From positions 1-23,519 of IMG/VR virus record IMGVR_UViG_3300036985_005109: a stretch of 23,519 nt of DNA; one strand, given 5' to 3'. Positions 1,564 to 18,404 of this stretch are shown in pieces. The notes under the pieces are model-generated. The model had not been told where the DNA came from and did not search any database. It worked only from the letters and a program-made list of their open reading frames with translations. This DNA comes from a virus. Position numbers and translations under genes: made by a program. Every line of letters starts with the position of its first letter. The first letter of the stretch is position 1.

Positions 1564-1773
1564 ATGGCTGAAGTACATCGGGTGCTGGTGGAACTAGATC
1601 ATACGGTAGAGGTGCTGCGGCATGAGCTTCTACGCGTCCGCAAGGCGTTCGAGACCTACGCGCGACATCTCGGGAATTGCGAAATCGAGCGCACGAATTC
1701 CTGTACTTGTGGATTTATCGGCATTCGCCGATCGGTGGACACCGGGGAGTGGAGCGATAATCATGCCAGCTAG
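1564..1773 (+). CDS. small protein with predicted coiled coil and C-terminal Cys cluster, 69 aa
   Basis: I prefer ATG 1564 to the upstream in-frame ATG 1531 because GGAGG at 1554-1558 sits five bases before it, while 1531 has no ribosome binding site. The N-terminal two thirds (VHRVLVELDHTVEVLRHELLRVRKAFETYARH) look like one long amphipathic helix able to form a coiled coil. It is followed by NCEIERTNSCTCGF, where His and three Cys could hold a metal ion; small phage proteins with an H-x-x-x-C...CTCG ending are common, from memory. The gene overlaps the start of the next one by 11 bases. Confidence 0.65.
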   Translation: MAEVHRVLVELDHTVEVLRHELLRVRKAFETYARHLGNCEIERTNSCTCGFIGIRRSVDTGEWSDNHAS

Positions 1774-4700
1774 CATAGTGCGGCCCGGGGAAGAGCATTT
1801 CTGGGAGCGCGCCAAGGCCCGCGCGGCGAAGCAAGACCACAAGGAAGACTGGCCGTATGTTACGGCCATTTTTTTGAAAATGGTGGGGCGCGGATCGCTC
1901 AAAAAGGGATTTTACATCCCGGAGAAATACCGGGCCTACCGAATCCCGGGCCAGGTGCCTCCGATAAATCCGAATTCCCCCGAGCGGCGCGTCCAGGACG
2001 ATCTCCAGAAAATGCCGGACGGGGTATCGGTGGCGCGGTTGCTCGACCACGACTCGCCCCGGGCGTCGGCCCAGTCGGTGGTGGACAACCTGGGGCTCGA
2101 CATGCCGACCCAGCGCCGATGGACCCAATTTCTGGAAAAAGCGGTGCGCTCGAGCCCCAATGAGCTGACCTACCGAAAGAGCGTCCACGAGCAGCTAACC
2201 GATGCGCGCATGGGGAGCGAGCTTCGCATGGCCATCATGCAGCGGGCTGTATCGCACTGGCGGACCCTGCACAAGGGCCTGGTGGAGATACTGACCCCGG
2301 ACGAGGCCCTCGAGAAGGCCTGGGGTAGCGAGCGGCCGGGACACAAATACCTCCGGCGAAAGCGGGTGGGCGATCACTGGGAGTATGAATACCCGGGCAA
2401 GCCTGGGAGCCAACCCCAGCAGCTCGGGCTATTCGCCAATGTCGGGAACAAGCCGAAGCAACCCCCCGTCGAGCATTTAGAGACCCGGGTGGTGGAGCCC
2501 GTACCGCCGGAGGCCGCGGCGCATGTCCCCGAGGTGCCGCTACCCCTACCGCCGGAGCCGACCTCCGAAGCCGTGGAGAAGCCGAAAGAGCGGTTTGTTG
2601 TAAAGCCCGAGCCCCGGGAGGCGGCGACCGAGGCCGCGGTGGGCGTATTGAGCGGAGGCAAGTGGGATCAGCTCAAGGCGGCCGGTTGGACGGTGAAATG
2701 GGAAGACGAGGTGACCGGGGCCGACGAGGTAGATCCGGACAAGGGCGTGGGTCCGTTGCCTGGATCGAAAGCTCGACAGCTTGCCGAGCGAGGGCTGGTG
2801 GTGGTCAAGCCCCGGGCCCCGGAGCCCGAGCGGCCCAAGCTGGTGCTCACCGAGCCGGAGGCCAAGGGCCAGGAAGGCCTTACCGCGGAGCAGGGCGAGC
2901 ACGTTTGGGGATCGAGGAAAGACAAGGCGGATCTCAATTCGAGCGCGGATCTCGACGAGCTGACCCCCGAAGCCCAGGCCAAGGCGGTCACCAAGAAAAA
3001 GCTCCTCCCCACCTGGGAGCCGGAGGATTTGCTCGAGCAGGGATGGAGCCCGGACGGGGTGTTGCTCCGTAAGGCCCTCGAGTCGTTGATTGCCGAGAAG
3101 CCGGGCAATTCCATCGGGGAGCGAAAGGGGTTTTTCGAGGGGGTGGATTTTATCGCCAGCTCGTTCGACAATTGCCGCACGGCCGACGACGTGGTGGATT
3201 TCCTCGAGGACTGGAAACACCTCGGCCAGAAGGAACGGCGCATAGGGAAAATGACCCCCGAGGAGATCAACGAGGCCACCGACAAGTACCTGACCGCGAC
3301 GGGTGAACCCCCGGAAATGGGGTGGCGGGAGCGCAAGGCCTGGGATGAGAAGGTGTTCGAGGCCTACACCAAGTACCGCCAGGCGAGCTATCGGGACAGC
3401 AACGCCCCCGAGACCAAAAAGCTCCTCGAGGAGTACCAGGCGCTCGCCGCCGAAGCGCGGGAAAAGGGGGCAAAGGCTCCGCTGGTCCCGATGAATATGG
3501 TGCTCGCCCACCATTTCCGGAGTGCTCGGAATGTGTCGATCGGCTACAGCGCCGACGGGTCGGTGATGGCCTACGGGCAAGACGATACGCTCGGGGACAA
3601 GCTCGACAACCCTTATATCCGGATGGCGGTGTCCTGCGGGGACCGGTTGCGCAATGCCATTGCAGGGGGTGGCGGGCGCTACGGGAGCAAGCGGCCCAAG
3701 GCCCTCGAGGACGCGCTGAAGCAAGCCCGGGAGATGGCCAAGCTCGAGGACGGCAACGCCAAGGCGCTGGCCCTGTTTGCCATCCTCGGGAAAAAGCGGG
3801 AGACCGGGGAGCGGCGGCAACCCTTCAAGTGGGAGCGGGACGTGCCGGGGGAGATCGACCGCAAGGGAGGCCGGGAAGTCGCCAAGGCCGACCCCCAGGC
3901 GTTCGCCAAAGATTTCGGCTTCAAAAATGTCCAGTTTGGCGGCTGGGTGAGCGAGGGGGACGCCGACAGTCACCTCAAGGGCGCGCACGGGGCGCTGTTC
4001 GACCTCGCCGACCTCATGGGGGTGGACCCCCAGCACATTTCCCTCAACGGCCGGCTGAGCATCGGCTTTGGGGCGCGGGGCTCTGGGAGGGCCGCGGCGC
4101 ATTACGAGCCCTTGGGGCGGATCATCAACATCACCAAGGTGGCCGGCGGGGGATCGCTCGCCCATGAGTACGGGCACGCGCTCGACCACATCATTTCGTT
4201 GGCCGGCGATCTTTCCAGCTCAAAGGCGGACCGCATGCTCACCCACGGCGACCACGCGGGGGTGAATCCCAGGGTGGTGGCGGCCGTGAAAAAGGTGATG
4301 GGGCACATCTACTACAAAGATCCCGAGGCCTATGAGGCCCGGGAGAAAATGAACCAAATGCAGCGAGACGCCCGGAGCGGGAAAGAGCCGGTTACTCTGG
4401 AGACGCGGGTGGAATTTGCGCGGCTCAACAAGCTGGTGAATGCGATCAAGGCCAGCGACTACAGCAAGCACGCGCTCAGTTTTTCCCAGGGCGGGGACGG
4501 GTACTACTCCCGATCGCATGAGCTGTTTGCTCGCGCGTTCGAGAGTTACGTGGAGGATGCCCTCGAGGGCCAGGGGCGGAAATCAAGCTACCTGGTGGCC
4601 GGTACCAAACAGAAGTACGCTACCGGGAAATTCATCAACGAGGAGGCCCGGAAAAAGGGGGAGCATAGCCAGATCTACCCCCAGGGCGAGGAGCGGAAAG

Positions 4701-5206
4701 CCATCAACCAAGCAATCAAGGAGTTTGTGGCGGTGCTACAGGAGGAAAATACCTTGGAAAAGTCACTCCAGGCGCTCGAGGACTTCGAGAAAGGTCAATC
4801 TCGGATGTTTTTCTTACCGTCCGAAAAGCCTACCCTGAAGAAAACCCGGGAGCCCCGGGGCGGTACTTTCCACCGGCGCGTCCCTAAGCCTGGGGGCGGT
4901 TTCACGTATTATTACGACCCTGAGAAGTACGCCGGCCGGAAGGATGCCCATCTGACCGGGGAGGAGGCTACCAAGGCGCACCTCCACGGGAAAATTCACA
5001 AGGCGATAGCGGAGCAGGGCAAGGGTGGGGCGCATATCAAGCATTTCGCCGAGCTGGCCAAAAAGCATGGGAGCCAGGCGGTGGCCGAGGCCTTGCGGGA
5101 AAACGTAAAAACCGGCAAGCTGAATTTCAAGAAAGGGCGATTTCACGGTAAGGTAGAAGAGGCCCAGGAAGCCGAGAAACCGGCCCCTGAAAAAAAGAAG
5201 GAATAG
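1763..5206 (+). CDS. polyvalent virion protein with LPD1/zincin-like domain, 1147 aa
   Basis: ATG 1763 has GGAG at 1751-1754 and overlaps the upstream gene by 11 bases; the frame is open further upstream but without a better start. Residues 1-45 carry a FWERAKARAA...YVTAIFLKM helix pair typical of phage polyprotein starts. LEK185 is followed by an AWGSERPGHKYLRR repeat, then QLGLF at 220-224 and a Pro/Glu-rich linker. Residues about 690-950 match the Large Polyvalent protein-associated Domain 1 described by Iyer and colleagues: FGFKNVQFGGWVSEGD, SLNGRLSIGFGARG, then SLAHEYGHALDH. H801-E-Y-G-H805 is a zincin motif and E920 in ELFARAFESYV is the likely third ligand. TLEK1000-S, FEK1010-G and LKK1027-T follow, then a second RRVPKPGGG repeat. 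I infer a packaged precursor cut into several proteins. The substrate of the zincin is unknown. Confidence 0.85.
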   Translation: MPASIVRPGEEHFWERAKARAAKQDHKEDWPYVTAIFLKMVGRGSLKKGFYIPEKYRAYRIPGQVPPINPNSPERRVQDDLQKMPDGVSVARLLDHDSPRASAQSVVDNLGLDMPTQRRWTQFLEKAVRSSPNELTYRKSVHEQLTDARMGSELRMAIMQRAVSHWRTLHKGLVEILTPDEALEKAWGSERPGHKYLRRKRVGDHWEYEYPGKPGSQPQQLGLFANVGNKPKQPPVEHLETRVVEPVPPEAAAHVPEVPLPLPPEPTSEAVEKPKERFVVKPEPREAATEAAVGVLSGGKWDQLKAAGWTVKWEDEVTGADEVDPDKGVGPLPGSKARQLAERGLVVVKPRAPEPERPKLVLTEPEAKGQEGLTAEQGEHVWGSRKDKADLNSSADLDELTPEAQAKAVTKKKLLPTWEPEDLLEQGWSPDGVLLRKALESLIAEKPGNSIGERKGFFEGVDFIASSFDNCRTADDVVDFLEDWKHLGQKERRIGKMTPEEINEATDKYLTATGEPPEMGWRERKAWDEKVFEAYTKYRQASYRDSNAPETKKLLEEYQALAAEAREKGAKAPLVPMNMVLAHHFRSARNVSIGYSADGSVMAYGQDDTLGDKLDNPYIRMAVSCGDRLRNAIAGGGGRYGSKRPKALEDALKQAREMAKLEDGNAKALALFAILGKKRETGERRQPFKWERDVPGEIDRKGGREVAKADPQAFAKDFGFKNVQFGGWVSEGDADSHLKGAHGALFDLADLMGVDPQHISLNGRLSIGFGARGSGRAAAHYEPLGRIINITKVAGGGSLAHEYGHALDHIISLAGDLSSSKADRMLTHGDHAGVNPRVVAAVKKVMGHIYYKDPEAYEAREKMNQMQRDARSGKEPVTLETRVEFARLNKLVNAIKASDYSKHALSFSQGGDGYYSRSHELFARAFESYVEDALEGQGRKSSYLVAGTKQKYATGKFINEEARKKGEHSQIYPQGEERKAINQAIKEFVAVLQEENTLEKSLQALEDFEKGQSRMFFLPSEKPTLKKTREPRGGTFHRRVPKPGGGFTYYYDPEKYAGRKDAHLTGEEATKAHLHGKIHKAIAEQGKGGAHIKHFAELAKKHGSQAVAEALRENVKTGKLNFKKGRFHGKVEEAQEAEKPAPEKKKE
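2318..2398 (+). repeat. HKYxRR peptide repeat, copy 1 (degenerate)
   Basis: Residues 186-212 of the LPD1 protein, directly after LEK185. The core is SERPGHKYLRRKRVGDHWEY. It matches copies at 4844-4921 and 13965-14042 in the order acidic/Arg, G-H-K-Y, R-R, then an aromatic YxY end. It looks like the first two strands of a small beta domain placed at the new N-terminus of a released fragment. Confidence 0.6.
4844..4921 (+). repeat. HKYxRR peptide repeat, copy 2
   Basis: Residues 1028-1053 of the LPD1 protein, directly after LKK1027. The core FHRRVPKPGGGFTYYY is nearly the same as the core RRVPKPGGGYTYFY of copy 3 in the giant protein, although the rest of the two genes is unrelated. The residue after the lysine here is Thr, unlike the other junctions. 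Confidence 0.65.
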
Positions 5207-5210
5207 GGTC

Positions 5211-7877
5211 ATGGCCCCTCGATTTTTTGTAAACGATCCAGATTTGGCCAAAGCTCGGCGAGACCCCTTGACCGCGCCAGTCGTGGCCGGCAAGCCCAAG
5301 CGCCCGGCCAAGGAATACGCCGACCAGGGAACGGTGGGTCCGGCGGATTATGCCGACCCCCAGAATTTCAAATATCCGCTGCACAAGCCGGCGAACGTCA
5401 AGGCGGCCATCCAGCATTTTTCCAATGCGAAAAATGCCGGGAAATATCCCGCCGACGAGCAGGCGGCCATCTGGGGTAGGATCAAGGCTGCGGCCGGGAA
5501 ATTCGGGATCGCGATCCAGGAAAGGAAAATTCCGATGAGCAAATCCATGTCCGGGTTGGAGCGGATCAATCAATACCTCGAGCTATCCAAGGCCGGCGGC
5601 CCGTATATCGGGCCCCACGGTGGCAAGTGGGCAGACCCCCAGCACAAGGTTTCCTGGAAAGAATTGGGCAAGACCTCGAGCGGGAAGCCGGTTCATGAGG
5701 CCACCCACGAGAAATACAACACGAGGGGCAAGGTCAAGGGCGAGCCACGGCATGGCAATGCTTTGTACGAGCCCAAGTTGATGCGGGAGCAATTCCCCCA
5801 GCACACCAAGCAAGATCATGCCGACGCGGCAAAGATCCACCAGGAGCACGCGGAAAAGACTGCGGCCGAACATGCGAAGTTGGTCCACCGGGCGGATACG
5901 GTTCACGGGGTGACTTTGAATTCCCGGGACGATTTCAATCTCCTCCCCAAGGGTATGGGGGAGGAGATTGACGCGCTGAAAGAGCAGAGCACCAAGTCGA
6001 GCATGGCGGCCAAGTCGCACGAGGCCGCCGGCAAGGCGATGAAGCGCAATCCTAGCCAGGCAGAGCCCCAGCCCGAGGAGCCGAAAGCCGAAGCCAAGCC
6101 CACGGCCTCGGGGGAGCCCACTGATCGGGAGAAATTCGACAGGGATAGGCCCGACGTGAAAGCGGCCGAAATGTCGCATGCGGCCAAGCAAGCGTCCGAA
6201 AAAATCAAAGGCATGCGCCCTGGAGATCCTGGATTTCAGGAAGCTCATACCGCTGCGGCGGAAGGACACCGCAAAGCCAGGGAAGCGTTGAATTCTGCGC
6301 GTGATGAGCAGCAGAAAGCGACTGGTTTTTCTAGGGGTAGCCAAGGGACCGATCACACCGAGGGGATAGCGTATCACGAGCACCAGGCAAAAAAGACGGG
6401 CAAGGCCCCGGAAAAGAAGACCCCCGCGCTTGATGCCATGCGGGAAAAAATAGCGGCTGGGATGGCGAAGTTTGGAAAGCCAGCTTATAAACCGGATCTT
6501 ACAGAGGTACATCGTTTGCGCGATGAAGCGCACACAGCATCTGATAAGACCAAAGGGATGAAGCGGACAGATCCAGGATTTCATGAAGCGCATAAGACGG
6601 CTGAAAAAGCTCACCATAAGGCGCGAATTGCTTTTACGCGTGCAGCGGACAAAGAGGGCAAGGCTACAGGCACCCATCCGGGTTATTCGTTAGAAGCTCT
6701 ACGTCATGATAAGTTTGAAAACCATCACCGGATTGCGACAAGTAACGAAAGCGGCGGTTATCAGGTTAAACAGGAAAAGCCAAAGGCCCCCCAGGCGAAA
6801 CCATCCAAGGATAATTCTCAGTATATAAGCTCTAAAGCCAATGAGGCCAGTAAAGATGCGGCGGTGCAGAGCAAGGCCTTTCCCATCCAGCACACGGCGA
6901 TGCATGAGCGGGCAGCGAGTTTCCATCGTCTGGCAGCCAAAGACCAAGAAAAAGCCGGGTTTCAAGAGGCTGCGGATAATCACCGAGCGGTGGCAAAGCA
7001 TCACGACGAATGGGCTGCGAATAAGCCCGGACCCGCTCCGGCACCAGAAAAGAAACCCGAGTCTGGCCCCACGAAAAAAGACCAGCTCGATTTATTCGGA
7101 GGTAGCAAAGTGAAAAAGTCATTTGATGGGATCGAGGGAATGCTCGACTACCTCCGGAAGTCGGAGCCCCAGGCGCTCCCCACCGGCGAGCCGAGCATGG
7201 GCGGCTCGGGCGCGGAGCAGGGCGGCGACGTGGCCGGCAAGGGCAAGGTGGGCGGTTCCCCGGATTCGGCCCCGAGCAAGGGTTTCGACAAAGACGGCAA
7301 GGCGCAGGGTGTCTCTCCGGGCAAGACCGAGAAGCTATCCGAGGATGACGAGGACGTGGAGGCCCAGCTCAAGAACAAGGCCCCCAAGACCCTGGGTAAG
7401 AGCATGGCCATGCCCGCGCACCAGCGGGAGATGGTGGCCAGGGAGCACGCGCTGGCCGTCTCCCGGCTCGTCCGCGGGCAGCGCGACATCGTGGTAGGGT
7501 GCGGGCCTGGAGCCCCTCCTGCGGCTCCGGAGCCCCTACGGAAGGCCCATTCCTGGGCCCAGGGGCGGGATTCCCGGGTGGTGTATTCCGATGCCTCGGA
7601 TCAGGCGGTGGAGCAGCTACTCAAGGGCGACCCGTTTTACACTTACCAGGCCCCGACCACCAAGCGTGATTCAATCCTGATTCACCAGGTTCGGGAGTGC
7701 GCGGCGTGCCAGGGCACGTTCACCAAGAGCCTGGCCTCTTGCCCGCATTGCGGGGTGGGGTCGCTCAATCCTCTGGTGGCGATCCATGGGCACGAGCCGG
7801 TGGAGGAGCTTCAGAAAAGCCGAGCGCCGTTGCTGCGCCCGCGAGTGGAGCGGGATCTCTATTTCGGGAAAAAATAG
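5211..7877 (+). CDS. multidomain virion-associated protein (DUF6582-like N-terminus, repeats, C-terminal zinc ribbon), 888 aa
   Basis: ATG 5211 follows the upstream stop by four bases, with AAGGA at 5198-5202. Residues 1-105 (KYPLHKPANVKAAIQHF...ADEQAAIWGRIKAAAGKFGI) match my memory of the DUF6582 type of small domain seen in phage head proteins. LSK127 is followed by a GGPYIGPHGGKWADP repeat. Residues about 180-610 are rich in Ala, His, Lys and Glu and contain a 45-residue repeat. QLDLF at 625-629 fits the bacterial sliding-clamp binding consensus. KVKKSF, LRKSE, LGKSM, LRKAH and LQKSR sites follow. The end carries C830xxC833 and C844xxC847, a zinc ribbon. It stands right before the portal gene. 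Overall function unknown; I infer a head or injected precursor protein. Confidence 0.8.
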   Translation: MAPRFFVNDPDLAKARRDPLTAPVVAGKPKRPAKEYADQGTVGPADYADPQNFKYPLHKPANVKAAIQHFSNAKNAGKYPADEQAAIWGRIKAAAGKFGIAIQERKIPMSKSMSGLERINQYLELSKAGGPYIGPHGGKWADPQHKVSWKELGKTSSGKPVHEATHEKYNTRGKVKGEPRHGNALYEPKLMREQFPQHTKQDHADAAKIHQEHAEKTAAEHAKLVHRADTVHGVTLNSRDDFNLLPKGMGEEIDALKEQSTKSSMAAKSHEAAGKAMKRNPSQAEPQPEEPKAEAKPTASGEPTDREKFDRDRPDVKAAEMSHAAKQASEKIKGMRPGDPGFQEAHTAAAEGHRKAREALNSARDEQQKATGFSRGSQGTDHTEGIAYHEHQAKKTGKAPEKKTPALDAMREKIAAGMAKFGKPAYKPDLTEVHRLRDEAHTASDKTKGMKRTDPGFHEAHKTAEKAHHKARIAFTRAADKEGKATGTHPGYSLEALRHDKFENHHRIATSNESGGYQVKQEKPKAPQAKPSKDNSQYISSKANEASKDAAVQSKAFPIQHTAMHERAASFHRLAAKDQEKAGFQEAADNHRAVAKHHDEWAANKPGPAPAPEKKPESGPTKKDQLDLFGGSKVKKSFDGIEGMLDYLRKSEPQALPTGEPSMGGSGAEQGGDVAGKGKVGGSPDSAPSKGFDKDGKAQGVSPGKTEKLSEDDEDVEAQLKNKAPKTLGKSMAMPAHQREMVAREHALAVSRLVRGQRDIVVGCGPGAPPAAPEPLRKAHSWAQGRDSRVVYSDASDQAVEQLLKGDPFYTYQAPTTKRDSILIHQVRECAACQGTFTKSLASCPHCGVGSLNPLVAIHGHEPVEELQKSRAPLLRPRVERDLYFGKK
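5592..5663 (+). repeat. GGPYIGPxGGKWADP peptide repeat, copy A
   Basis: Residues 128-151 of the 888-residue protein, right after LSK127. The core reads GGPYIGPHGGKWADPQHK and ends in SWKE. Three further copies stand in the giant protein at 10743, 16185 and 17292. Codons differ between copies, so selection acts on the peptide and the copies are not a recent DNA duplication. Confidence 0.85.
6192..6326 (+). repeat. 45-residue internal repeat, unit 1
   Basis: Begins ASEKIKGMRPGDPGFQEAH and ends QKATG. About 25 of 45 residues equal the second unit at 6537-6671 by hand alignment. Both are predicted helical hairpins with a conserved DPGF turn and regularly spaced His and Ala. Confidence 0.7.
6537..6671 (+). 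repeat. 45-residue internal repeat, unit 2
   Basis: Begins ASDKTKGMKRTDPGFHEAH and ends GKATG. It lies in a stretch (about 6430-6850) whose codons use A and T at third positions far more than the flanks, so this unit may have come from a different source than unit 1 rather than by local duplication. A weaker third unit may follow near 6890-7010 (MHERAASFHRLAAKDQEKAG). Confidence 0.65.
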
Positions 7878-10427: not shown

Positions 10428-13400
10428 ATGAAGCTCCGAATCGAAGCTACTCCAGCCGAGATGGTGGAAAAATCCGAGGACCTGGTGCGCGCGCTGAGCA
10501 ATCGACTTGCCCCGTTCGATCCACATCTGGCCGATATTCTGGAAAAAGCCCTGCCCTATCCCGAGCCGGATCTGAAATACCCGGTGCTGCAACACCTCAA
10601 AGAGCAGACCAGCAAGCTCTACAAAGAGCACATCGAGGCGATGCTCGGGGAAATCGGCAAGGTGCTCGAGGGCGGCGACATGCAGAAATCGGAAATCGGG
10701 GAGGACTGGGGCGACCTGGCCATGGGCGAGGCCCTCGAGAAAGCTGGAGGACCGTACATCGGACCGCGGGGAGGAAAATGGGCGGATCCGGAGCATACGA
10801 TCTCGTGGAAGGAAAATGACAACCCGCACCCCGAGGGGTTTGTGGCTCCCACCGAGCGGCACCCGGATGCCAAGGTGCTCGAGAAGCTGACCGAATGGGG
10901 CGAGCAGCTTTACGAGACCCAGCAGATGGACCCGCTAGAGCAGGATAGCAGCGGATTCTCGTACTATGACATGGAGGTTTGGCGAAGCGTTCGATCGAGC
11001 GGGAATGTCACCCGGATGCGCAACCTATTGCGGAAATACCGCCGGCAATTGCTCGGGAGCAAGGTGCACGCGGAAGTGGACCACGAGGACCTGGCTGAGT
11101 GGATCAAGCTGGGGATGACGGACCAGGTGCAGGACAAAACGGCCCCGGTTACGATTTTGGCGAGCTATCACCCGACCTATGGCAGCTTGAACTTGAAGCT
11201 GGGCGGCTGGGTAGCTCGGGATAAATTCGACAAGTTCATGGAGGTGGCCTGGAAATACAAGCTCAAGCCCGGGGGCAACGGTGTGGTGTACATCCATCGG
11301 CGGGATCTCGCCGATTTTGATCCGGAAGCCTATAGCAAAGAGGTGGCCGAGCTAGGCTGGGTAGTCACTCCTCCCGAGGGGGGTTGGCACACCGAGCGGC
11401 CGGTCAACGCTCCGGCACCGGTGCCGGTGGCGGTAACCGCCGAAGAGATTCGAGACGGGATACAAGCCAAGCGGGTTTACAATAAGATCGCGGTGATTCG
11501 GGGTGATGACGGGATTTTCCGGTTCTACTCGCCCTTTTCTCGAGAATTCAATGCGGTCATGTCGAACAAAAGCGGGCGGCTCACGGGGATCATCCGGACC
11601 GACCCGGTGACGTGGGCGCGGGAGACCCACCAGCTCGACCTGGTGGAGGAGGCGATCGTCAAGCTCCAGGAAGTGCACCCGGACTGGGAAATCGTGACCT
11701 CGGGGGTGAAAGAGGCCCAGCTCGAGCGCGACACCACCCTGGCCGACCTCCAGAAGCCCATTCCAGGCGTGGCCGAGAAGCTCGACCCGCGGTTCAAGCT
11801 CTTTCCCTATCAAAACGAGTGCGTTCGATTCCTGGATCAGGCCGACGGTAATGCGCTGATCGGCGACGAAATGGGGTTGGGAAAGACGCTCGAGACCCTT
11901 GCCTGGGCCGTGAAAGGCAACAAGCGACTCCTGATCGTATGTCCTAAAGTCGTCCGCCGGCAATGGCTGAGTGAAGCCCAAAAGTTCTTTCCAGGCCATT
12001 TCCGGGGTACTGAGCTAGTGTCGGCGGATATTAAAAAGAAGCGCGTGCCGGATCTGGCGGGGATGAATATTGCGGTGGTGAATTACGAGAGCCTGGATAA
12101 GTTCGAGCCCTATTTGAAGGGGGCAGGGTTCGATACCATCGTGATCGATGAGTCGCACCGCATGAAATCCCCCAAGGCAAAGGTCACCAAAAATCTGCAA
12201 AAAGCTGCGGCCGGCATGAAGCACCGGATTCTTTTGTCCGGCACCGCGGTGAAAAACAAGCGCGACGATCTGATTACCCAGCTCGAGCTGGTGGCTCCGG
12301 GGAAATTCGCGGATACAAAGGTGACCCAGGTTTACGTGGTGCCTGGTACCGATGAGCGTATCCCGGTAAAGACGAAATCGAAGTTGAAAAACTCGACCAT
12401 CGGCGGGCTCTGGCAGGACATGAGGGGCGTGTATCTGGCTCGATCGAAGCACAAGGTGCTCAAGGATTTGCCCGATAAAATCACGACCGTGGCCCGGATT
12501 AATGTCCCCGACCTCCCCGATTTCGATCCGCGCTGGGAGGGTAGCGAGAAATTCGAGCGGATGAGCCAGCTACGCAATCAAATTGCCGTGGGCAAGGTCC
12601 CGGCGACGGTGGAATTTATCCAGAATATCCTGGAGAATTCCCATGACAAGGTGCTGGTGTTTTCCGAGTCGGTGGAGTGCACGCGCCAGATCCAGGCGGC
12701 GTTGGGAGACGATACCGCAATTTTCAATTACGGTGGATTGAGCGACAAGGTGCGGGAGGAAAACAAGGCGGAATTCCAGCGCCAGGACGCGAACGGGGAT
12801 TTCGTGAGCCCGAAGCGCGTGTTTGTGACCACCCGGCCGTCCCTCGCCGAGGGGGCCAACATGACCGCGGCCAATGCCGTGGTGTTCAACGATCTGCCCT
12901 GGACCGCTGCGGCAATTCGCCAGGCCGAGGACCGGACCCATCGGCCTGGCCAGAAAAAGAGCGTCAACGTCTACTGGGTGACCGCGGCCGATAACGCGTT
13001 CGATTCGAACGTGCAATCCATCATTGAAAAGAAATACGCGTTAGCCAAAAAGCAGAATCAAGGCCTCCAGCTCACGGCGGAAGAGGTTGCCTGGATGGAG
13101 AAGCCGGTCAAGATGGGTGACCTCATGGCCCAGTTGTCGGGTCATGACGTGGCTCCCGGGGTGCCGGTGGTGACCAGCGAAGAGGACGAGGCTGCGGCCG
13201 AAGCGGCCATGGATGCAAATCTGGATAAGTCGTTTATTTTTTCGACCTCGGGGCATGACCAGCTACAGAAAGGGGCCGGTTATGGAAGAGACGACGCTGC
13301 GGGTGGAAGGGGATACCTGGGAGGAGGCGATGGGGGAGCTTTACCTTTGGATCGTGGAGAAGTACTCCGGGATTTTCCAGGTGAAGCTGAAAAGCCCTTT

Positions 13401-16400
13401 GCTGAGACATCCGAATGGCAAGTGGGAAATCACGCTGAGCGCGCAGAAAAAAGCCTGGGATCGGCGGTATCATCCTCCGAAGGATACGGAGGGGGAGCAG
13501 ATTCGAGCCCTCCGGAGCCTACTGAATCAGGACGTGGACTTGAAGGTGGCGCGGGTTTTGGAAATGAATCTCCCGGAGCTGGAAATGCAGATGAAGGGGA
13601 TGGGTATGCACCTTTCGCCCTAGCCCATGAAATTGAAATGCCGGCCGACCTGGTGGAGGCGCTTTTCGGGGACCTCGAGCTGAGTCTGGAGGCCGGAGCG
13701 CGCCGGGTGCGCGCCGACGGGGAGCCCACCCGGTATTTCTACCGGGCGGCGGACGGACACCCCGAGGATTTCGAGTGGGGCAGCACTTTCCGGGTGAGCG
13801 GGCAGACGGTGCGGGTCAAGGCTGCGATCGGTGACCTGGTGAAAGCCGAGCACGCTGGCCAGGTCTACCTGGTATCCCCGAAAGAATTTTCAACCTTGCT
13901 GTACTACCACGAGGACGGCTGGATCCAGATGGAGGAGGCCGCGGGCTCCGAGGCGTTTGAGAAATCCCTCGGGCAGGAAAGGGCCGGCCACAAGTACATC
14001 CGGCGAGTGCCGAAGCCGGGTGGCGGGTACACCTATTTTTACAGGGACAGCGCAATCGGGCGCGGGCCCACGGCGGGCGAGAGCGTCAAGGTCGGCGACC
14101 GGCACATCCACGTCAAAGCCGTGGACGAGGAGTCGGGCAAGGTCACCCTGCACGACGGCGAGCGTGACTTGGAGGTGGGGCACGAGGACTGGGGCAAGCT
14201 CCTCGCCGAGCACTACGGCGAGGCCTATTTTGCGAGCGCGGAGAAGCGGGCGAGGCAAGTGGTCCGGGCGGTGGCGAAGCACATCCCGGTAGAGGCCCTG
14301 GCCGGCCTCAAAGAGGGGACCGATACCGAGCGGCTGACCGAGCTGGAGACCCGGGTGCCCGAATTGCACGCGAAGCTGGCAGCGGCGTTCAAGCGGGCCG
14401 GCTTGTCCATGGTGCAGGCTAAAACCATCCTCGGGGACGTGCTGGCCAGGCGGGGGTGGCAGCCGGAAGCTCGAGCGGTGGTGATCGGGTCGGTAGTCTC
14501 CGAGGGCGGTATCCAGATCGCCAATGCCTACAAATCGGTCATGAAAGGTGCGGAAAACCTGGCCGGCGCGGGGGTGGTCGAGGCCCGGCACGCGCAAGCG
14601 GCGGTGGAGCTGATTCGGCCGCAACCCAAGGATCACACCGATAAGCTCGAGGCCGAGCTGACCCGACTCCAGGGGTTGATCCGGGCGGCGATGTCTGGAG
14701 GGGACAAGGCCCGGGTGGCGGGTATCCTGGCCCACACCATGGCGCTATCCTCGGAGGTGCTCCACCAGGCGCAGGCGATGGGCGTGGCGTACCCTGGAGC
14801 CCTGGGGGACAGCCTGGTGGGTGGAGCCCGAGAGGCGCTCCTCCAGGTGCCCGCGGTGGCTCCCAGGGCCAAGCCCACGACCGAGGGGGCCCAGACCCAG
14901 GTTTACGTGGCGGGGGAGGGTGGCAAACCCCAGGCGCTCCGGGCCCGGTATCGATTGGTGGACGCCGGGAAGCTCCGGGCGAGCCACGATCCGCTGAAAA
15001 ACTTCGCGGCAAACCCTGATTATCCAGCAGGGGTGCAAGAGCGCGCCTACCATCGGGACCTCGCCGAGCAGGCCAAGGTCCGGACCAATGCCCAGAAGCT
15101 CACGCCGGCATTTTTGGTCAACACGAATCCCGACGCCGTGAATGGGCCTCCGGTGGTGACCGAGGATGGGGTGGTGTTGGGCGGGAATTCCCGGACCATG
15201 AGCATGCAGCTCGCCTACCATGAGCATCCCGAGCGTGCGGCCGAGCTGCAAGCCTACCTCGCCGAGCATGCCCACGAGGTAGGGTTCAAGGCCGAGGATG
15301 TTGCAGCGATGCAACATCCGGTGCTGGTGCGGGTGCTCGAGGGCGGGGAGCGGAGCAAGGCCGAGCTACAGCTTTTGGTGAGGCAAGCGAATGAGTCTTT
15401 TACCCAAAGCATGGACCCCAGGACCATGCAGGTTGCGCTTGCCCGGAAGCTCGACGATCAGACCATGAAAAGCCTTATGTTAGGGATGGATAAGGATGAA
15501 ACCCTAAACGCTTTTCTAGGGTCGAAACGGGTCGATGGTTTCATCGCAAATTTGCGTCGGGTGGGTGTGATCGATGCCCGCAACGTCAACCAATTTCTAT
15601 CCCCCAAAACGGGCAAGCTGAACGAGGATGGCAAGACCCTGGTGGCCAGGATTCTGGTGGGCAAGGTGATCGATAACGCGGACCTCCTGGCCGAGACCGG
15701 GAGCAAGATCCTGGCCTCCATCGCGCAGTCGGTCCCGCATATGTCGCAGGCGGCTGGATTCGGGGCGGGCTATGACCTATCGGGCTCACTCCAGACGGCC
15801 ATGGGCGCGTTTAATCGACTTCAGGAAAGGGTTGAAGCTGGGAGCCTTAAGGGCTTGGATTCAAAGATTTCTGATCGGGAAATCGATTCGATCATGAATA
15901 ACGAATTCGCCGACATGTTTGGCACTCGACACCCGATCCTGGAAGACTCCCGCGCGCAAGAGATTCTGCGGGTGCTGATCAAAAAGCCAGGGCCCACCCA
16001 GATGTCAGGGGTATTTCAGGAATACGCGGCCCTGGCTGCGCAGAATCCAGAGGGCCAGGCGGTGCTCGGGGGCAAGGCCCGGACGCCGGAGGAGGTGTTT
16101 CATTTGTCGGTCGAGGCGGCCACCCGGAAGGGCTCGATCGAGAAATCCCTCGCCGGGGAGCTGGGCTTCTGGACGTTGGAAAAAGGTGGGCCCTTTATCG
16201 GACCTCGTGGCGGGAAATGGGCTGACCCAGAGCACACGATCGCATGGAAAGAACCCGAGGCAAAGCAGAGCAAACCGGCCGAGGGGCAGAAGCCCGAGGA
16301 GCCCATTGCGGTCAATTTCCATCCGGTCATGTTGCGGAATATGCACGAGCAGGTGACATGGAATTACCGGGTGGTGAAGCGGGAGGGTGGCCAGGTGAAA

Positions 16401-18404
16401 TTGTCCCGGCACGAGGGGCTTGATTATGGCCCTACGATGCCGGAGGAGTCGGTCAAGCATTTCCAGAATGACCTCGCCGGTAAAGTGGACCTCCCCCCCG
16501 CGGGTCGCCCGGAAATCGATGCAGTGACCTCCGGCAAGGCCGAATTTCTCGGGAAGGGCGACGATGGGTTGGTGTTTAAGGTCGGGGATCAGGTAGTGAA
16601 GGTGTCAACTACGGTACCCTACCAGCCAGAAAACCCCGGGCACCGGACGCCAGAGGCGGCGGCGGAAATGCTCCGAAAGCAAGTCGAGGTGGGAAATTTA
16701 CTTGCTGGCAAGGGTATCCCGGGGATTCAGCGATCGGAATACGTGCGGCATGGGGACAAGGGATTCCAGATCAAGCCATGGGTGGAGATCCCGAAGACCT
16801 TCACCCGGGAGCAGCTTGATAAAATCCAGGATACGGTGATCGGCGTCCATAAGGCGGGTTACGCGTTGCGGGATTCAGTGCAAGCGGGGCTCGACGCCAA
16901 GGGCGAGCCGGTGTTGTTCGACGTGGGCAAGGCTGGGCTCCAGGGGAAAGGCACGGGGATTTATAGCGATATTGAAAGCGACATGGATAGTTTGCGGAAA
17001 GTCTATCACGAGAGCGGGGAGGATTTTGTCCGTCGAGATGTGAATGAGGGCGAGCAGGCCTGGCAGCGGACTACTGCGCGTTTTCCAAAATTTTTTGCAG
17101 AAGGGAAATTCAAGATTGCTCGAAATAATCTGAAAATGGCGGTGGACAAGCGATTGCAGATTGCTCGAGCAACCCTAAAAGGGGAAGAGCTGAAAAGCGC
17201 CGAGAGCCGGATTGATTTTGAGCGGCTGGTGTACGAGGGGGATATCGAGGACGCGGAGAAAAAGGCTGCGGAAAATCCAGAGCTGAAAAAAGCCGGAGGT
17301 CCCTATATCGGGCCCAAAGGCGGAAAATGGGCAGACCCCCAGCATACCATTTCCTGGGAGCCGGAGAAGCCCAAAGAGGCCGAAGCACGCAAGTGGGAAA
17401 CGGTTAAAATTGTCGATACCCGCGATTATGATTGGGAGACGGGAAAGCCTATCCCGGGGACCGGGGCGGGGGCAACCTGTACGCGCTGCGAGCGCACCCA
17501 CGACGTGATCCACACCATGCGCCACCCGGAAACGGGGGAGCACCGGGAGGTGGGCAGCGGGTGTGGGCCGAAAATGGCCGGCGGGAAAGAAAACCTGGAT
17601 GATGCTTCTATCGATCGCGCCAAGACCGTGGCCAAAAAAGAAATGGCGGAGAAATTCGAGAGCCAGGCCCGGAAATGGCTGCATGCGGCAAGTAAGAAAA
17701 TAGATGAGGTGATCCAGGAAGGGCGAATCACGCATAAGCCTTTTTACGTGGGCCACACCCCGGTTGATCCGGATATGGTACGCAGTGAGTTTTCTAAAAA
17801 GAATTGGGATACCTATGCCCCCTTGGGGCAAATCCGGATCTACGAGGACCCAGAAAAAACTCATGAGGTGCTGGCTTCCCGGAGCCCCATGGATAAAGAA
17901 AACATGCTCACCCAGACGGTGCAGGGGGCTTATATTCATGGGATTGTCGATCAGGTTTTGCAGGAAATTGGGGTACCAGAAAAAACAAAATGGCCGGTTA
18001 AGCTCGGGCGTCCTTTTCGGAGCAAAGATCCGAGGGCCGCGCTTCGACAAATTATTTTTCATACTCTAGTGCACCGGTATTTTGCGGTAGGTGCCGGTTG
18101 GGGAAAGCCTGGGTACCGTTGGACTGAGGGTCATGCAGAGCCGAGTCTGACTATCACTAAAAAGAATCCTCGGGGCATTGATCTGGAAAAATACCCGATC
18201 CTGCAAAAATCCCTGGAGCCCGAAGCCGAGGACTTCGAAGACCCGACCCAGGAAATCCTGGAGCGGGAGGCGCTGGCCTACCGCCGGCTGAAAGCGGTGC
18301 TGGCTCGACTAGGGTATAGTGAGGCCGACTATGATATATCCGGTCCGCTGTACGGGCTGAGCGCAAATCAATTGCTGGAAGTCGCGCAACGGGGGAGGAA
18401 ATGA
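10428..18404 (+). CDS. giant polyvalent polyprotein: SNF2 helicase, DdrB/ParB-like, kinase-like and Zn domains, 2658 codons
   Basis: ATG 10428 has GGAGG at 10416-10420, seven bases upstream. Residues 1-105 hold four ΦxK-[SA] sites (MVEKS, ILEKA, DMQKS, ALEKA) and look like a leader. The order after it is: GGPYIGP repeat; SNF2-family ATPase with GLGKT 483-487, DESH 574-577 and RTHRPGQ 836-842; LDK934-S; a Gly/Ser-rich stretch of odd codon use (about 952-1070); FEK1179-S with HKYIRR repeat; DdrB/ParB-like domain with GGNSR near 1585; IEK1906-S and LEK1919-G with GGPFIGP repeat; kinase-like domain about 2030-2200; LKK2288-A with GGPYIGP repeat; a CTRC domain; LQK2594-S and a tail. Such domain mixtures are known from polyvalent proteins injected with phage DNA. 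The stop overlaps the methyltransferase start as ATGA. The frame may be an artificial or recent join of two genes (see 13282-13623). Confidence 0.85.
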   Translation: MKLRIEATPAEMVEKSEDLVRALSNRLAPFDPHLADILEKALPYPEPDLKYPVLQHLKEQTSKLYKEHIEAMLGEIGKVLEGGDMQKSEIGEDWGDLAMGEALEKAGGPYIGPRGGKWADPEHTISWKENDNPHPEGFVAPTERHPDAKVLEKLTEWGEQLYETQQMDPLEQDSSGFSYYDMEVWRSVRSSGNVTRMRNLLRKYRRQLLGSKVHAEVDHEDLAEWIKLGMTDQVQDKTAPVTILASYHPTYGSLNLKLGGWVARDKFDKFMEVAWKYKLKPGGNGVVYIHRRDLADFDPEAYSKEVAELGWVVTPPEGGWHTERPVNAPAPVPVAVTAEEIRDGIQAKRVYNKIAVIRGDDGIFRFYSPFSREFNAVMSNKSGRLTGIIRTDPVTWARETHQLDLVEEAIVKLQEVHPDWEIVTSGVKEAQLERDTTLADLQKPIPGVAEKLDPRFKLFPYQNECVRFLDQADGNALIGDEMGLGKTLETLAWAVKGNKRLLIVCPKVVRRQWLSEAQKFFPGHFRGTELVSADIKKKRVPDLAGMNIAVVNYESLDKFEPYLKGAGFDTIVIDESHRMKSPKAKVTKNLQKAAAGMKHRILLSGTAVKNKRDDLITQLELVAPGKFADTKVTQVYVVPGTDERIPVKTKSKLKNSTIGGLWQDMRGVYLARSKHKVLKDLPDKITTVARINVPDLPDFDPRWEGSEKFERMSQLRNQIAVGKVPATVEFIQNILENSHDKVLVFSESVECTRQIQAALGDDTAIFNYGGLSDKVREENKAEFQRQDANGDFVSPKRVFVTTRPSLAEGANMTAANAVVFNDLPWTAAAIRQAEDRTHRPGQKKSVNVYWVTAADNAFDSNVQSIIEKKYALAKKQNQGLQLTAEEVAWMEKPVKMGDLMAQLSGHDVAPGVPVVTSEEDEAAAEAAMDANLDKSFIFSTSGHDQLQKGAGYGRDDAAGGRGYLGGGDGGALPLDRGEVLRDFPGEAEKPFAETSEWQVGNHAERAEKSLGSAVSSSEGYGGGADSSPPEPTESGRGLEGGAGFGNESPGAGNADEGDGYAPFALAHEIEMPADLVEALFGDLELSLEAGARRVRADGEPTRYFYRAADGHPEDFEWGSTFRVSGQTVRVKAAIGDLVKAEHAGQVYLVSPKEFSTLLYYHEDGWIQMEEAAGSEAFEKSLGQERAGHKYIRRVPKPGGGYTYFYRDSAIGRGPTAGESVKVGDRHIHVKAVDEESGKVTLHDGERDLEVGHEDWGKLLAEHYGEAYFASAEKRARQVVRAVAKHIPVEALAGLKEGTDTERLTELETRVPELHAKLAAAFKRAGLSMVQAKTILGDVLARRGWQPEARAVVIGSVVSEGGIQIANAYKSVMKGAENLAGAGVVEARHAQAAVELIRPQPKDHTDKLEAELTRLQGLIRAAMSGGDKARVAGILAHTMALSSEVLHQAQAMGVAYPGALGDSLVGGAREALLQVPAVAPRAKPTTEGAQTQVYVAGEGGKPQALRARYRLVDAGKLRASHDPLKNFAANPDYPAGVQERAYHRDLAEQAKVRTNAQKLTPAFLVNTNPDAVNGPPVVTEDGVVLGGNSRTMSMQLAYHEHPERAAELQAYLAEHAHEVGFKAEDVAAMQHPVLVRVLEGGERSKAELQLLVRQANESFTQSMDPRTMQVALARKLDDQTMKSLMLGMDKDETLNAFLGSKRVDGFIANLRRVGVIDARNVNQFLSPKTGKLNEDGKTLVARILVGKVIDNADLLAETGSKILASIAQSVPHMSQAAGFGAGYDLSGSLQTAMGAFNRLQERVEAGSLKGLDSKISDREIDSIMNNEFADMFGTRHPILEDSRAQEILRVLIKKPGPTQMSGVFQEYAALAAQNPEGQAVLGGKARTPEEVFHLSVEAATRKGSIEKSLAGELGFWTLEKGGPFIGPRGGKWADPEHTIAWKEPEAKQSKPAEGQKPEEPIAVNFHPVMLRNMHEQVTWNYRVVKREGGQVKLSRHEGLDYGPTMPEESVKHFQNDLAGKVDLPPAGRPEIDAVTSGKAEFLGKGDDGLVFKVGDQVVKVSTTVPYQPENPGHRTPEAAAEMLRKQVEVGNLLAGKGIPGIQRSEYVRHGDKGFQIKPWVEIPKTFTREQLDKIQDTVIGVHKAGYALRDSVQAGLDAKGEPVLFDVGKAGLQGKGTGIYSDIESDMDSLRKVYHESGEDFVRRDVNEGEQAWQRTTARFPKFFAEGKFKIARNNLKMAVDKRLQIARATLKGEELKSAESRIDFERLVYEGDIEDAEKKAAENPELKKAGGPYIGPKGGKWADPQHTISWEPEKPKEAEARKWETVKIVDTRDYDWETGKPIPGTGAGATCTRCERTHDVIHTMRHPETGEHREVGSGCGPKMAGGKENLDDASIDRAKTVAKKEMAEKFESQARKWLHAASKKIDEVIQEGRITHKPFYVGHTPVDPDMVRSEFSKKNWDTYAPLGQIRIYEDPEKTHEVLASRSPMDKENMLTQTVQGAYIHGIVDQVLQEIGVPEKTKWPVKLGRPFRSKDPRAALRQIIFHTLVHRYFAVGAGWGKPGYRWTEGHAEPSLTITKKNPRGIDLEKYPILQKSLEPEAEDFEDPTQEILEREALAYRRLKAVLARLGYSEADYDISGPLYGLSANQLLEVAQRGRK
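10743..10814 (+). repeat. GGPYIGPxGGKWADP peptide repeat, copy B
   Basis: Residues 106-129 of the giant protein, directly after ALEK105 and before the helicase-bearing segment. The core is GGPYIGPRGGKWADPEH, ending SWKE. If cleavage after K105 occurs, this peptide becomes the N-terminus of the helicase fragment. Confidence 0.85.
10743..13229 (+). other. predicted mature segment: SNF2-family helicase/translocase
   Basis: Residues 106-934 of the giant protein, bounded by LEK105-A and LDK934-S. Residues about 245-340 and 375-440 each contain a beta-rich piece (LNLKLGGWVARDKFDKFM; IAVIRGDDGIFRFYSPFSREF) that recalls the HARP-like extensions before SMARCAL1-type SNF2 enzymes. The ATPase core has motif I GDEMGLGKT, motif II DESH (the SNF2 variant of DEAH), motif III LLSGTAVKN and motif VI RQAEDRTHRPGQ, all intact, so DNA-dependent ATPase activity is likely. 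SNF2 translocases occur in phage P1 DarB, an injected antirestriction protein. The segment limits depend on the proposed cleavage sites and are inference. Confidence 0.7.
13282..13623 (+). CDS. nested small gene in another frame, 113 aa hypothetical protein
   Basis: ATG 13282 opens a 113-codon frame, +1 relative to the giant frame, ending at TAG 13621-13623; AAAGGGG at 13268-13274 is a modest ribosome binding site. The product (EGDTWEEAMGELYLWIVEKY, then KWEITLSAQKKAWDRRYHPP, then a helical end) has ordinary protein composition, and its third codon positions are mostly G or C as in the neighbours. The giant frame across the same bases is Gly/Ser/Glu-rich with mostly A or T at third positions. 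I conclude that this frame is the one under selection here. No family is recognised. It could be a true overprinted gene, or a gene caught between two genes that were joined by loss of a stop. Confidence 0.6.
   Translation: MEETTLRVEGDTWEEAMGELYLWIVEKYSGIFQVKLKSPLLRHPNGKWEITLSAQKKAWDRRYHPPKDTEGEQIRALRSLLNQDVDLKVARVLEMNLPELEMQMKGMGMHLSP
13965..14042 (+). repeat. HKYxRR peptide repeat, copy 3
   Basis: Residues 1180-1205 of the giant protein, directly after FEK1179. The core is HKYIRRVPKPGGGYTYFY. It starts the segment that carries the DdrB/ParB-like domain, as copies 1 and 2 start segments of the LPD1 protein. Confidence 0.75.
13965..16145 (+). other. predicted mature segment: DdrB/ParB-like domain
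   Basis: Residues 1180-1906 of the giant protein, bounded by FEK1179-S and IEK1906-S. After the HKYIRR repeat comes a small beta piece (KVGDRHIHVKAVDEESGKVTL) and a long helical part. Residues about 1508-1600 match the ParB-superfamily domain of the P1 DdrB type: VDAGKLRASHDPLKNF, QKLTPAFLVNTNPDAVNGPP, then VVLGGNSRTMSMQLAY. The helical part to 1880 fits the rest of DdrB-like proteins. Such domains bind nucleotides or DNA in relatives, and P1 DdrB is an internal head protein encoded with DarA. Function in this phage is inferred. Confidence 0.65.
16185..16253 (+). repeat. GGPYIGPxGGKWADP peptide repeat, copy C
   Basis: Residues 1920-1942, directly after TLEK1919. The core reads GGPFIGPRGGKWADPEH, ending AWKE. 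It lacks the Ala that precedes the two glycines in the other copies, so the residue after the lysine is Gly here. Confidence 0.8.
16185..17291 (+). other. predicted mature segment: divergent protein-kinase-like domain
   Basis: Residues 1920-2288 of the giant protein. FLGKGDDGLVFKVGDQVVKV (2041-2059) has the shape of a kinase glycine loop with K2058 as the candidate ATP-contacting lysine. Later H2141-KAGYALRD2149 resembles the catalytic loop and LFD2165-VGKAG resembles the DFG region. The Asn normally found five residues after the catalytic Asp is a Gly, so activity is uncertain. Kinase-like domains in polyvalent proteins are known (the family I recall as Kinase-PolyVal). The part after 2200 is helical and basic. 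It could be an active kinase, a pseudokinase or an unrelated nucleotide-binding fold. Confidence 0.55.
17292..17363 (+). repeat. GGPYIGPxGGKWADP peptide repeat, copy D
   Basis: Residues 2289-2312, directly after LKK2288. The core is GGPYIGPKGGKWADPQH, ending SWEP. It opens the last large segment of the giant protein. Confidence 0.85.
17292..18209 (+). other. predicted mature segment: Cys-containing (zinc-binding-like) domain
   Basis: Residues 2289-2594. C2351-T-R-C2354 is followed by a beta stretch and GSGCG with C2379; H2358, H2362, H2366 or H2372 could supply a fourth ligand. The pattern CxRC...H...VGSGCGPK is one I associate with small domains in polyvalent proteins, of unknown role. The rest is helical, then HRYFAVGAGWGKPGYRW. 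Codon use here is less GC-rich than in the helicase part. The segment ends at ILQK2594-S, leaving a 64-residue acidic tail. Confidence 0.5.

What the first reader, a model, noticed from the sequence alone, without database searches (positions are those of the whole stretch)
1763..5206. LPD1 zincin-like protein encoded upstream of the portal as a likely injected metallopeptidase
HEYGHALDH with a downstream ELFARAFESY Glu gives a full zincin metal site within a domain family known from polyvalent proteins of phages and conjugative elements. Targets are unknown; a metallopeptidase delivered with DNA could destroy a defence protein or mature the phage's own cargo.
Basis: partly seen in the sequence, partly recalled or inferred. 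Interest (0 to 1): 0.5.

Follow-up and report, generated by a model that had tools for sequence, protein, structure and literature searches.

The report
Phage cargo metalloprotease between protease-cut linkers
A bacterial virus appears to carry a zinc protease as one of several enzymes spliced into its head proteins between short cutting sites, which the virus's own head protease would use to free each enzyme before it is injected into the host.

Summary
Window 1763-5206 encodes an 1147-aa protein with a zincin domain: HEYGHALDH at 801-809, the predicted third-ligand Glu at 920, an accessory His at 780. Model pLDDT is 90.9; the leading VIA fold matches are zincins. Pfam LPD1 covers only the C-terminal part that holds Glu920. 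The domain class is already published (Iyer 2017).

Relatives show the protein to be a small "carrier" (residues 1-185 plus 1028-1147) opened by an insert of about 840 aa that holds the metallopeptidase. The carrier normally joins at LxK|[SAG] followed by a short tag. [LF]xK[SA] is over-represented fourfold in the window's ORFs. In 53 portal-defined loci LxKS and LxKA rank 1st and 2nd of 8,000 patterns after homology reduction. Tag A follows such a site in 46 of 46 cases there. The signal tracks an SPO1-like portal and assemblin-like head protease, not the metallopeptidase. HK97's head protease cuts at K103/S104.

Best reading: the head protease, not the zincin, cuts a modular cargo polyprotein at LxK|[SAG] inside the prohead, freeing the zincin and other units for injection. 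Cleavage, packaging and target are inferred, not shown.

The parts
1763..5206 (+). whole ORF, 1147 aa: carrier protein with inserted zincin metallopeptidase unit
1763..2317 (+). carrier N-terminal part (residues 1-185), homologous to the separate small genes L010:4594-5652, L011:4447-5328, L090:468-1259
2309..2320 (+). predicted head-protease site LEK|A (residues 183-186) at which the carrier is opened
2336..2392 (+). tag B copy 1 (PGHKYLRRKRVGDHWEYEY)
2318..4843 (+). inserted unit, residues 186 to about 1027, absent from uninterrupted carriers; ends at LKK|T
3830..4762 (+). zincin metallopeptidase domain (residues about 690-1000)
4100..4102 (+). His780 on core strand, 79 of 82 sequences
4163..4189 (+). 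HEYGHALDH: HExxH plus Asp808 three residues on
4520..4522 (+). Glu920, predicted third zinc ligand, 82 of 82 sequences
4490..4747 (+). Pfam LPD1 match (residues 910-995), C-terminal part of the zincin domain
4754..4795 (+). predicted sites LEK|S (998-1001) and FEK|G (1008-1011) directly after the zincin domain
4844..5203 (+). carrier C-terminal part (residues 1028-1147) with tag B copy 2 (4859-4915)
5211..7877 (+). 888-aa protein: DUF6582, tag A (5589-5657), seven [LF]xK[SA] sites; its C-terminal part is fused behind the zincin unit in L010
7887..9632 (+). SPO1-like portal protein (39-42% identity to the best herellevirus matches)
10428..18404 (+). 2658-aa polyvalent protein: SNF2 helicase, ddrB-ParB and further units; tag A x3 (10740-10808, 16179-16247, 17289-17357), tag B (13983-14042), eight [LF]xK[SA] sites
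18401..19822 (+). N6/N4 DNA methyltransferase
19813..21654 (+). MuF-type head protein with inorganic pyrophosphatase domain (residues 304-432) between sites LQK|S (20716-20727) and LEK|S (21175-21186)
22007..22864 (+). head maturation protease, assemblin/HK97 type; candidate catalytic His and Ser identical in 9 of 9 aligned sequences
22877..23519 (+). scaffold-like protein (weak family match, open at window end), eight [LF]xK[SA] sites in 214 aa

Best explanation
The gene encodes a zincin metallopeptidase carried as a removable unit inside a head-associated carrier protein. During head assembly the carrier, the giant polyvalent protein, the MuF-pyrophosphatase and other head-module proteins would enter the prohead. 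There the assemblin-like head maturation protease (22007-22864) would cut them at [L/F]-x-K|[S/A/G], the same kind of cut that would also trim scaffold and, in SPO1-type relatives, the capsid N-terminus. This turns a polyprotein-like cargo into separate units, many starting with a short tag (A, B or C). The free metallopeptidase would then leave the head with the DNA and cut a host protein. Shown by computation: the zincin site and fold, the carrier-insert architecture, the enrichment and lineage specificity of the sites, and the site-tag linkage. Inferred: that the protease cuts these sites, that cargo is packaged and injected, and that the zincin acts on a host target.
For: Zincin: conserved ligands, model pLDDT 90.9, leading VIA matches are zincins (lethal factor catalytic domain Z 9.8, 3dl1 Z 8.0, PPEP-1 Z 7.7). 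Carrier with insert: window residues 1-185 and 1028-1147 correspond to one contiguous protein in L010, L011 and L090, joined at LxK|A. Of 24 distinct contigs with both carrier parts in one ORF, 17 have [LF]xK[SAG] with at most 3 residues between K and the start of the C part (14 of 21 without the three seeds), and 7 have raw gaps of 86-994 aa there (in two of these, L124 and L144, the C part matches only from model position 40, so the true inserts are about 40 aa shorter). Two carriers bear a zeta-toxin kinase domain in C-terminal extensions. Sites: 40 against 9.2 expected in 11 window ORFs, reached by 0 of 1000 shuffles; six control patterns near expectation and one ([LF]xK[EDR]) below it. 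53 portal-defined loci: 635 against 253.6 expected, with controls at 0.95-1.08 and [VI]xK[SA] at 1.35; LxKS and LxKA rank 1 and 2 of 8,000 after homology reduction (3 and 2 before it, behind CxHC), against 283 and 66 in 60 control loci. Six named phages: head-module genes 57 against 18.0 expected, other genes 17 against 15.9. Tag A: 46 of 46 preceded by [LFMI]xK[SAG], background 5.9%, no tags in 60 control loci. Site next to the zincin's C-terminal end: 24 of 26 loci with SPO1-like portal/protease, 24 of 59 without. Protease model: the 14 best Foldseek matches are herpesvirus maturation proteases. Precedents: HK97 cut at K103/S104 (PMC10275583, passages); SPN3US AXE| with Ser favoured at P1' on head proteins including ejected ones (PMC10052503, passages).
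Against: No cleavage, packaging or injection data. Homology breakpoints lie near sites only weakly: 8 of 52 clusters, p 0.32, with all relatives; 10 of 40, p 0.02, with 17 close ones that I picked. Sites are only mildly depleted inside conserved regions (9 against 13.8 expected at coverage 2 or more; 14 against 16.4 at coverage 1; 31 sites), and one lies inside the SNF2 core (residue 592), so some matches are surely not cut. The window's own insert ends at LKK|T; the nearest [SAG] site is 17-20 aa upstream. Of the 6 other carrier inserts, 5 were scanned and none gave a Pfam family above its cut-off, so the window is the only case with an identified enzyme at the carrier joint. [LF]xK[SA] is modestly raised in loci without this portal/protease too (ratio 1.37). 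Non-head genes of phage Mx1 are also raised (6 against 2.1), and Staphylococcus phage 812, in the same family as SPO1, has no such site in its capsid or scaffold gene. Low TM-scores (0.26-0.38) and pLDDT 73 for the protease model. The window ends before a major capsid gene, so its capsid site is unseen.
Confidence: 0.62

Rival explanations
1. The zincin itself is the processing enzyme: it cuts the phage's polyvalent proteins, as proposed in general for such domains by Iyer et al. 2017.
For: Published proposal (PMC5512222, two sections read in full); per that paper, phage P1 DdrB, which holds such a domain, is processed before packaging.
Against: Predicted sites are as enriched in 50 portal-defined loci with no metallopeptidase in the fetched stretch (ratio 2.52) as in 3 with one (2.40). 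SPO1 and its relatives have the sites, while none of the 20 phage records matching the metallopeptidase is named as a phage of the herellevirus hosts seen (one of the 20 is an unclassified record). Loci with the metallopeptidase but without an SPO1-like portal/protease show as a group only a mild enrichment.
Confidence: 0.15
2. The zincin acts on phage cargo or on its own polypeptide only after ejection (delayed self-release), with the head protease doing little on this protein.
For: Conjugative relatives of such domains are transferred as full-length proteins (PMC5512222); the insert's right-hand joint in the window lacks an S/A/G site.
Against: A site lies directly after the zincin domain in 24 of 26 loci of this lineage.
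Confidence: 0.13
3. [LF]xK[SA] plus tags are docking or packaging signals (capsid or scaffold binding), not cleavage sites.
For: Sites are about fivefold enriched in the first 25 residues (68 against 13.2 expected), against 2.5-fold in the rest, where a targeting peptide would sit; DarB of P1 has an N-terminal capsid-targeting signal (PMC9024508, passages).
Against: The form (P3 preference, charged P1, small P1') matches known head-protease cuts, and the motif recurs behind the protease domain and near capsid N-termini. The two roles are not exclusive.
Confidence: 0.22
4. The domain is a catalytically dead or structural zincin fold.
For: No activity data.
Against: The predicted ligands, the general-base Glu and accessory His/Asp are conserved across distant homologues.
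Confidence: 0.05

Closest known systems
Polyvalent proteins with zincin-like MPTase domains (Iyer et al. 2017, PMC5512222)
   Same: same MPTase clade features (HExxH, Asp three residues on, conserved His on strand 2), same partner domains nearby (SNF2, ddrB-ParB, InPase, MuF), phage head context; they already draw the polyprotein analogy
   Different: they assign release to embedded peptidases; here a separate head protease and a lineage-specific site-plus-tag linker are indicated, and the zincin sits as an insert in a carrier
Head-protease processing of internal head proteins: SPN3US gp245 (AXE|; PMC10052503) and P1 DarA by Pro (PMC12810830, passages)
   Same: head protease with a P3-x-P1 rule acting on internal proteins, some ejected
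   Different: there 13 of 14 mapped SPN3US sites remove N-terminal propeptides; here many internal sites between different units are predicted
HK97 gp4 and herpesvirus assemblin
   Same: protease fold matches assemblins; HK97 cut is K|S
   Different: HK97's known substrate is the capsid scaffold domain; no multi-enzyme cargo is known to me for it (recall)
SPO1-type herelleviruses
   Same: portal (39%) and head protease (35-36%) homologous; in SPO1 [LF]xK[SA] is raised in four head genes (10 against 1.8) and not in ten others (2 against 3.7)
   Different: one tag A query found no match in the phage collection, and the metallopeptidase query listed no phage named for these hosts
Lethal factor catalytic domain, PPEP-1, MtfA-like 3dl1 (fold only)
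   Same: leading VIA matches, all zincins
   Different: 13-15% identity; Foldseek has no match at E 0.001 or better, and unrelated dehydrogenases score near the first hit (E 0.1); no functional inference

Membership tests
Zincin-like MPTase of phage polyvalent proteins | HExxH in a helix and a Glu in a second, later helix | tested here: met
[quoted passage not shown]
   strands 127-130, 140-143, 148-151; helices 92-113, 160-176, 279-297 in the model; sheet pairing itself not inspected
Zincin-like MPTase of phage polyvalent proteins | clade feature: His at end of strand 2 and Asp three residues after HExxH | tested here: met
   His780 79 of 82, Asp808 82 of 82; clade text
Zincin-like MPTase of phage polyvalent proteins | ligand geometry and zinc-dependent proteolysis | not testable with these tools
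   coordinates not exposed; no assay
Pfam LPD1 (PF18796) | profile match above gathering score | tested here: met
   78 bits against 27; covers residues 910-995 only
Polyvalent protein | several unrelated domains in one polypeptide in a head or conjugation gene context | tested here: inconclusive
   the window ORF holds carrier plus one identified enzymatic domain; neighbours 10428-18404 and 19813-21654 are multi-domain
Herellevirus/SPO1-type head module | portal and head protease homologous to SPO1 | tested here: met
   membership of the virus in Herelleviridae not tested
Assemblin/HK97-type head protease | fold and conserved His/Ser | tested here: met
   catalysis not tested
Head-protease substrate (zincin carrier) | cleavage at predicted sites in virions | not testable with these tools
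   no proteomics

The most novel reading that the evidence does not exclude
A plug-in cargo system: a lineage of phages with SPO1-like heads builds its injected arsenal as in-capsid polyproteins in which cassettes (zinc protease, zeta-toxin kinase, helicase, ParB-like, pyrophosphatase) are exchanged at LxK|[SAG]-tag junctions, so that any enzyme dropped between two sites is packaged and then cut free by the ordinary head protease. (Probability lowered from 0.5 to 0.45 on recheck, because no other carrier insert scanned has an identified enzyme.)
Probability: 0.45. Interest if true: 0.78.

Novelty: new variant of a known kind. Interest (0 to 1): 0.6.

Why it matters
If true, a sequence rule ([LF]xK|[SAG], often followed by a tag) would mark cargo units in a group of mostly uncultivated phages, let one read the injected arsenal from sequence, and separate two roles so far left open: zincins as processors and zincins as effectors. 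It also predicts the cut site of SPO1-type head proteases. The literature searches made here (in a library of open-licence papers only) did not show this site rule or these tags in the titles, starts of abstracts and passages I saw; absence elsewhere was not tested.

Tried and rejected
Single-protein scan of the viral contigs with the zincin domain found no relative; the alignment scan did (568 candidates confirmed, only the best 80 kept). Sequence search of the PDB gave one chance hit, E 0.51. Breakpoint and domain-depletion tests gave weak or null support and are told as such. A first regex for tag B and for the carrier N-terminus found nothing. Tag A query against named phages: no match. 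HK97 cut-site search with one term set found nothing; another led to PMC10275583. DOI look-up of the SPO1 genome paper: not held. Rejected: tags as recent DNA duplications (pairwise DNA identity of the four tag A copies 65-81%).

Motif origin and rows dropped: [LF]xK[SA] was chosen after looking at the window, so alone is circular; searches use other sequences. In one search the supersets [LF]xK and K[SA] are also raised (95 against 58.3; 131 against 89.1), as they contain the motif. In one search five loci (L001, L021, L036, L037, L047) and the window were dropped as copies. In one search, 20 of 73 loci were dropped as redundant (18) or overlapping seven discovery sequences (2). The 'without' group includes loci whose fetched stretch may miss the portal (L054 and L070 are enriched). 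In one search, 26 and 59 are the ORFs whose domain match reached near the profile end; window and L001 excluded, near-copies not removed. In one search I chose which genes count as head genes. In one search the tag seeds held no upstream residues, but some seeds came from test loci (for example L124, L125, L133). In one search six ORFs were dropped as copies of the same contigs; some of the 24 are close relatives of each other. Protein starts in the scripts are first Met of stop-to-stop frames, an approximation.
Full report
What was claimed.

Observation. The ORF, motif and coordinates are right. ATG1763 is the better start, since homologous proteins begin there. Pfam finds one domain, LPD1, spanning residues 910-995, so it holds Glu920 but not HExxH (801-805). 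In an alignment with seven homologues found by tblastn, H801, E802, H805, D808, E920 and R924 are identical in 8 of 8 rows (the row L007 is cut short, so its last two columns are doubtful). In 82 non-redundant sequences, window included, D808, E920 and R924 never vary and H780 is 79 of 82; HExxH itself was part of the pattern that fetched the 80 viral-contig loci.

Fold. An AlphaFold2 model from 63 sequences has mean pLDDT 90.9. HExxH sits in helix 160-176, Glu920 (model 281) in helix 279-297, His780 (model 141) on strand 140-143. Foldseek has no match at E 0.001 or better; its first is lethal factor (E 0.1), with unrelated dehydrogenases close behind. VIA-align, a second look at Foldseek's own list, puts lethal factor's catalytic domain first (Z 9.8, rmsd 4.0, 188 aligned), then 3dl1 (8.0) and PPEP-1 (7.7), with further, mostly zincin, rows below; the tool warns that Z up to 8 is common. 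The features are those of the clade that Iyer et al. describe by a strand-2 His and an Asp three residues after HExxH (PMC5512222, peptidase section read). So the enzyme is not new.

Neighbourhood. Portal and head protease resemble SPO1-type herelleviruses (SPO1 itself 39.0% and 35.6%). The protease model (pLDDT 73.1, core above 90) has herpesvirus maturation proteases as its 14 best Foldseek matches (best E 8.7e-4, TM-scores low). The other ORFs include a DUF6582 protein, a 2658-aa polyvalent protein with SNF2 and ddrB-ParB domains, a DNA methyltransferase, a MuF-type protein with a pyrophosphatase domain, and a weakly matched scaffold-like protein. A related portal (59%) lies in a Myxococcales MAG chromosome.

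Carrier and insert. In L010, L011 and L090 a small gene matches window residues 1-185 joined directly to 1028 onwards. The joint is LxK|A followed by a tag. The window protein is this carrier opened at that joint by an insert of about 840 aa that begins with another copy of the tag and ends after the zincin, at LKK|T. Twenty-four distinct contigs have both carrier parts in one ORF: 17 show [LF]xK[SAG] with at most 3 residues between K and the C part, and 7 have raw gaps of 86 to 994 aa at the joint (L124 and L144 match the C part only from model position 40, so their true inserts are about 40 aa shorter). Inserts hold further site-tag units. Of the six inserts other than the window's, five were scanned and gave no Pfam family above cut-off; C-terminal extensions of the carriers L106 and L125 hold a zeta-toxin kinase domain.

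Site rule. The 11 ORFs examined from 1763 to the window end hold 40 [LF]xK[SA] against 9.2 expected (0 of 1000 shuffles reach it). Six control patterns are near expectation ([LF]xR[SA], [LF]xE[SA], [LF]xQ[SA], [LF]xD[SA], [LF]xK[LV], [VI]xK[SA]) and [LF]xK[EDR] is below it (4 against 11.9). Because the pattern was chosen from the window, I tested it elsewhere. Among 86 loci, 28 with an SPO1-like portal or protease have ratio 2.43 and 58 without have 1.37 (p 2.7e-7); of seven controls one reached p 0.04. In 53 loci chosen by portal, not overlapping the discovery loci, the ratio is 2.50, with controls 0.95-1.08 and [VI]xK[SA] 1.35. In an open scan of 8,000 triplets LxKA and LxKS come second and third behind CxHC, and first and second (LxKS, LxKA) on 276 homology-reduced proteins, against 283rd and 66th in 60 control loci. 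In six named phages head-module genes have 57 against 18.0 expected, other genes 17 against 15.9; Mx1's other genes are an exception (6 against 2.1). SPO1, EalM-132, LysYB1 and Mx1 capsid proteins carry LxK|A with K at residue 23, 23, 20 and 14; phage 812's capsid and scaffold genes have none; PHB04's capsid gene was not identified in the stretch.

Tags. Three short Gly-rich modules recur. In the 53 test loci tag A (46 copies in 32 proteins of 19 loci) is preceded by [LFMI]xK[SAG] in 46 of 46, tag B in 8 of 10, tag C in 11 of 13; background 5.9%; none in 60 control loci. Tag A starts 1-7 residues after the predicted cut. Their function is unknown; an N-terminal cap or sorting signal is my inference.

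Mechanism. HK97's head protease cuts at K103/S104 (PMC10275583, passages), SPN3US's at AXE| with Ser favoured next (PMC10052503, passages), P1's capsid is cut at E120|S121 (PMC9024508, passages). The same form here, in scaffold-like, protease, portal and cargo ORFs, points to the head protease as the cutter. The zincin is then cargo. That it is not the cutter is suggested by equal enrichment in 50 loci without it (2.52) and 3 with it (2.40). A site lies at the zincin's C-terminal end in 24 of 26 ORFs of this lineage and 24 of 59 others (p 5e-6).

Limits. Breakpoints and domain depletion give weak support. No experiment shows cleavage, packaging, injection or a target. The most likely role, an injected protease acting on a host protein, is inference (about 0.55).

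Verdict. The enzyme is of a known kind; the carrier-plus-cut-site architecture, with a head protease serving a multi-unit cargo, is a new variant.

Noticed in passing
L019:12012-16295: SPO1-like portal ORF interrupted by two insertions of about 430 aa that start with Cys and end in HN before Cys or Ser: probably two inteins.
   Followed up: no
L098 (CP070713.1, Myxococcales MAG): Related portal (59%) with two tag A copies nearby in a bacterial chromosome: likely a prophage, hints at a myxobacterial host for part of the group.
   Followed up: partly
L096:13002-16721 (Myxococcus phage Mx1): Head protease annotated in a 1239-aa ORF with five [LF]xK[SA] sites.
   Followed up: no
L095 (Bordetella phage PHB04): (p)ppGpp synthetase-like, p169 and a 2097-aa methylase each have LxK|A or FxK|A with K at residues 6-8, like short propeptides.
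   Followed up: no
window 4490-4747: Pfam LPD1 appears to be the C-terminal part of the zincin domain rather than a separate domain.
   Followed up: partly
window 2546-4189, - strand: Antisense ORF of 547 aa over the metallopeptidase gene; not examined further.
   Followed up: no
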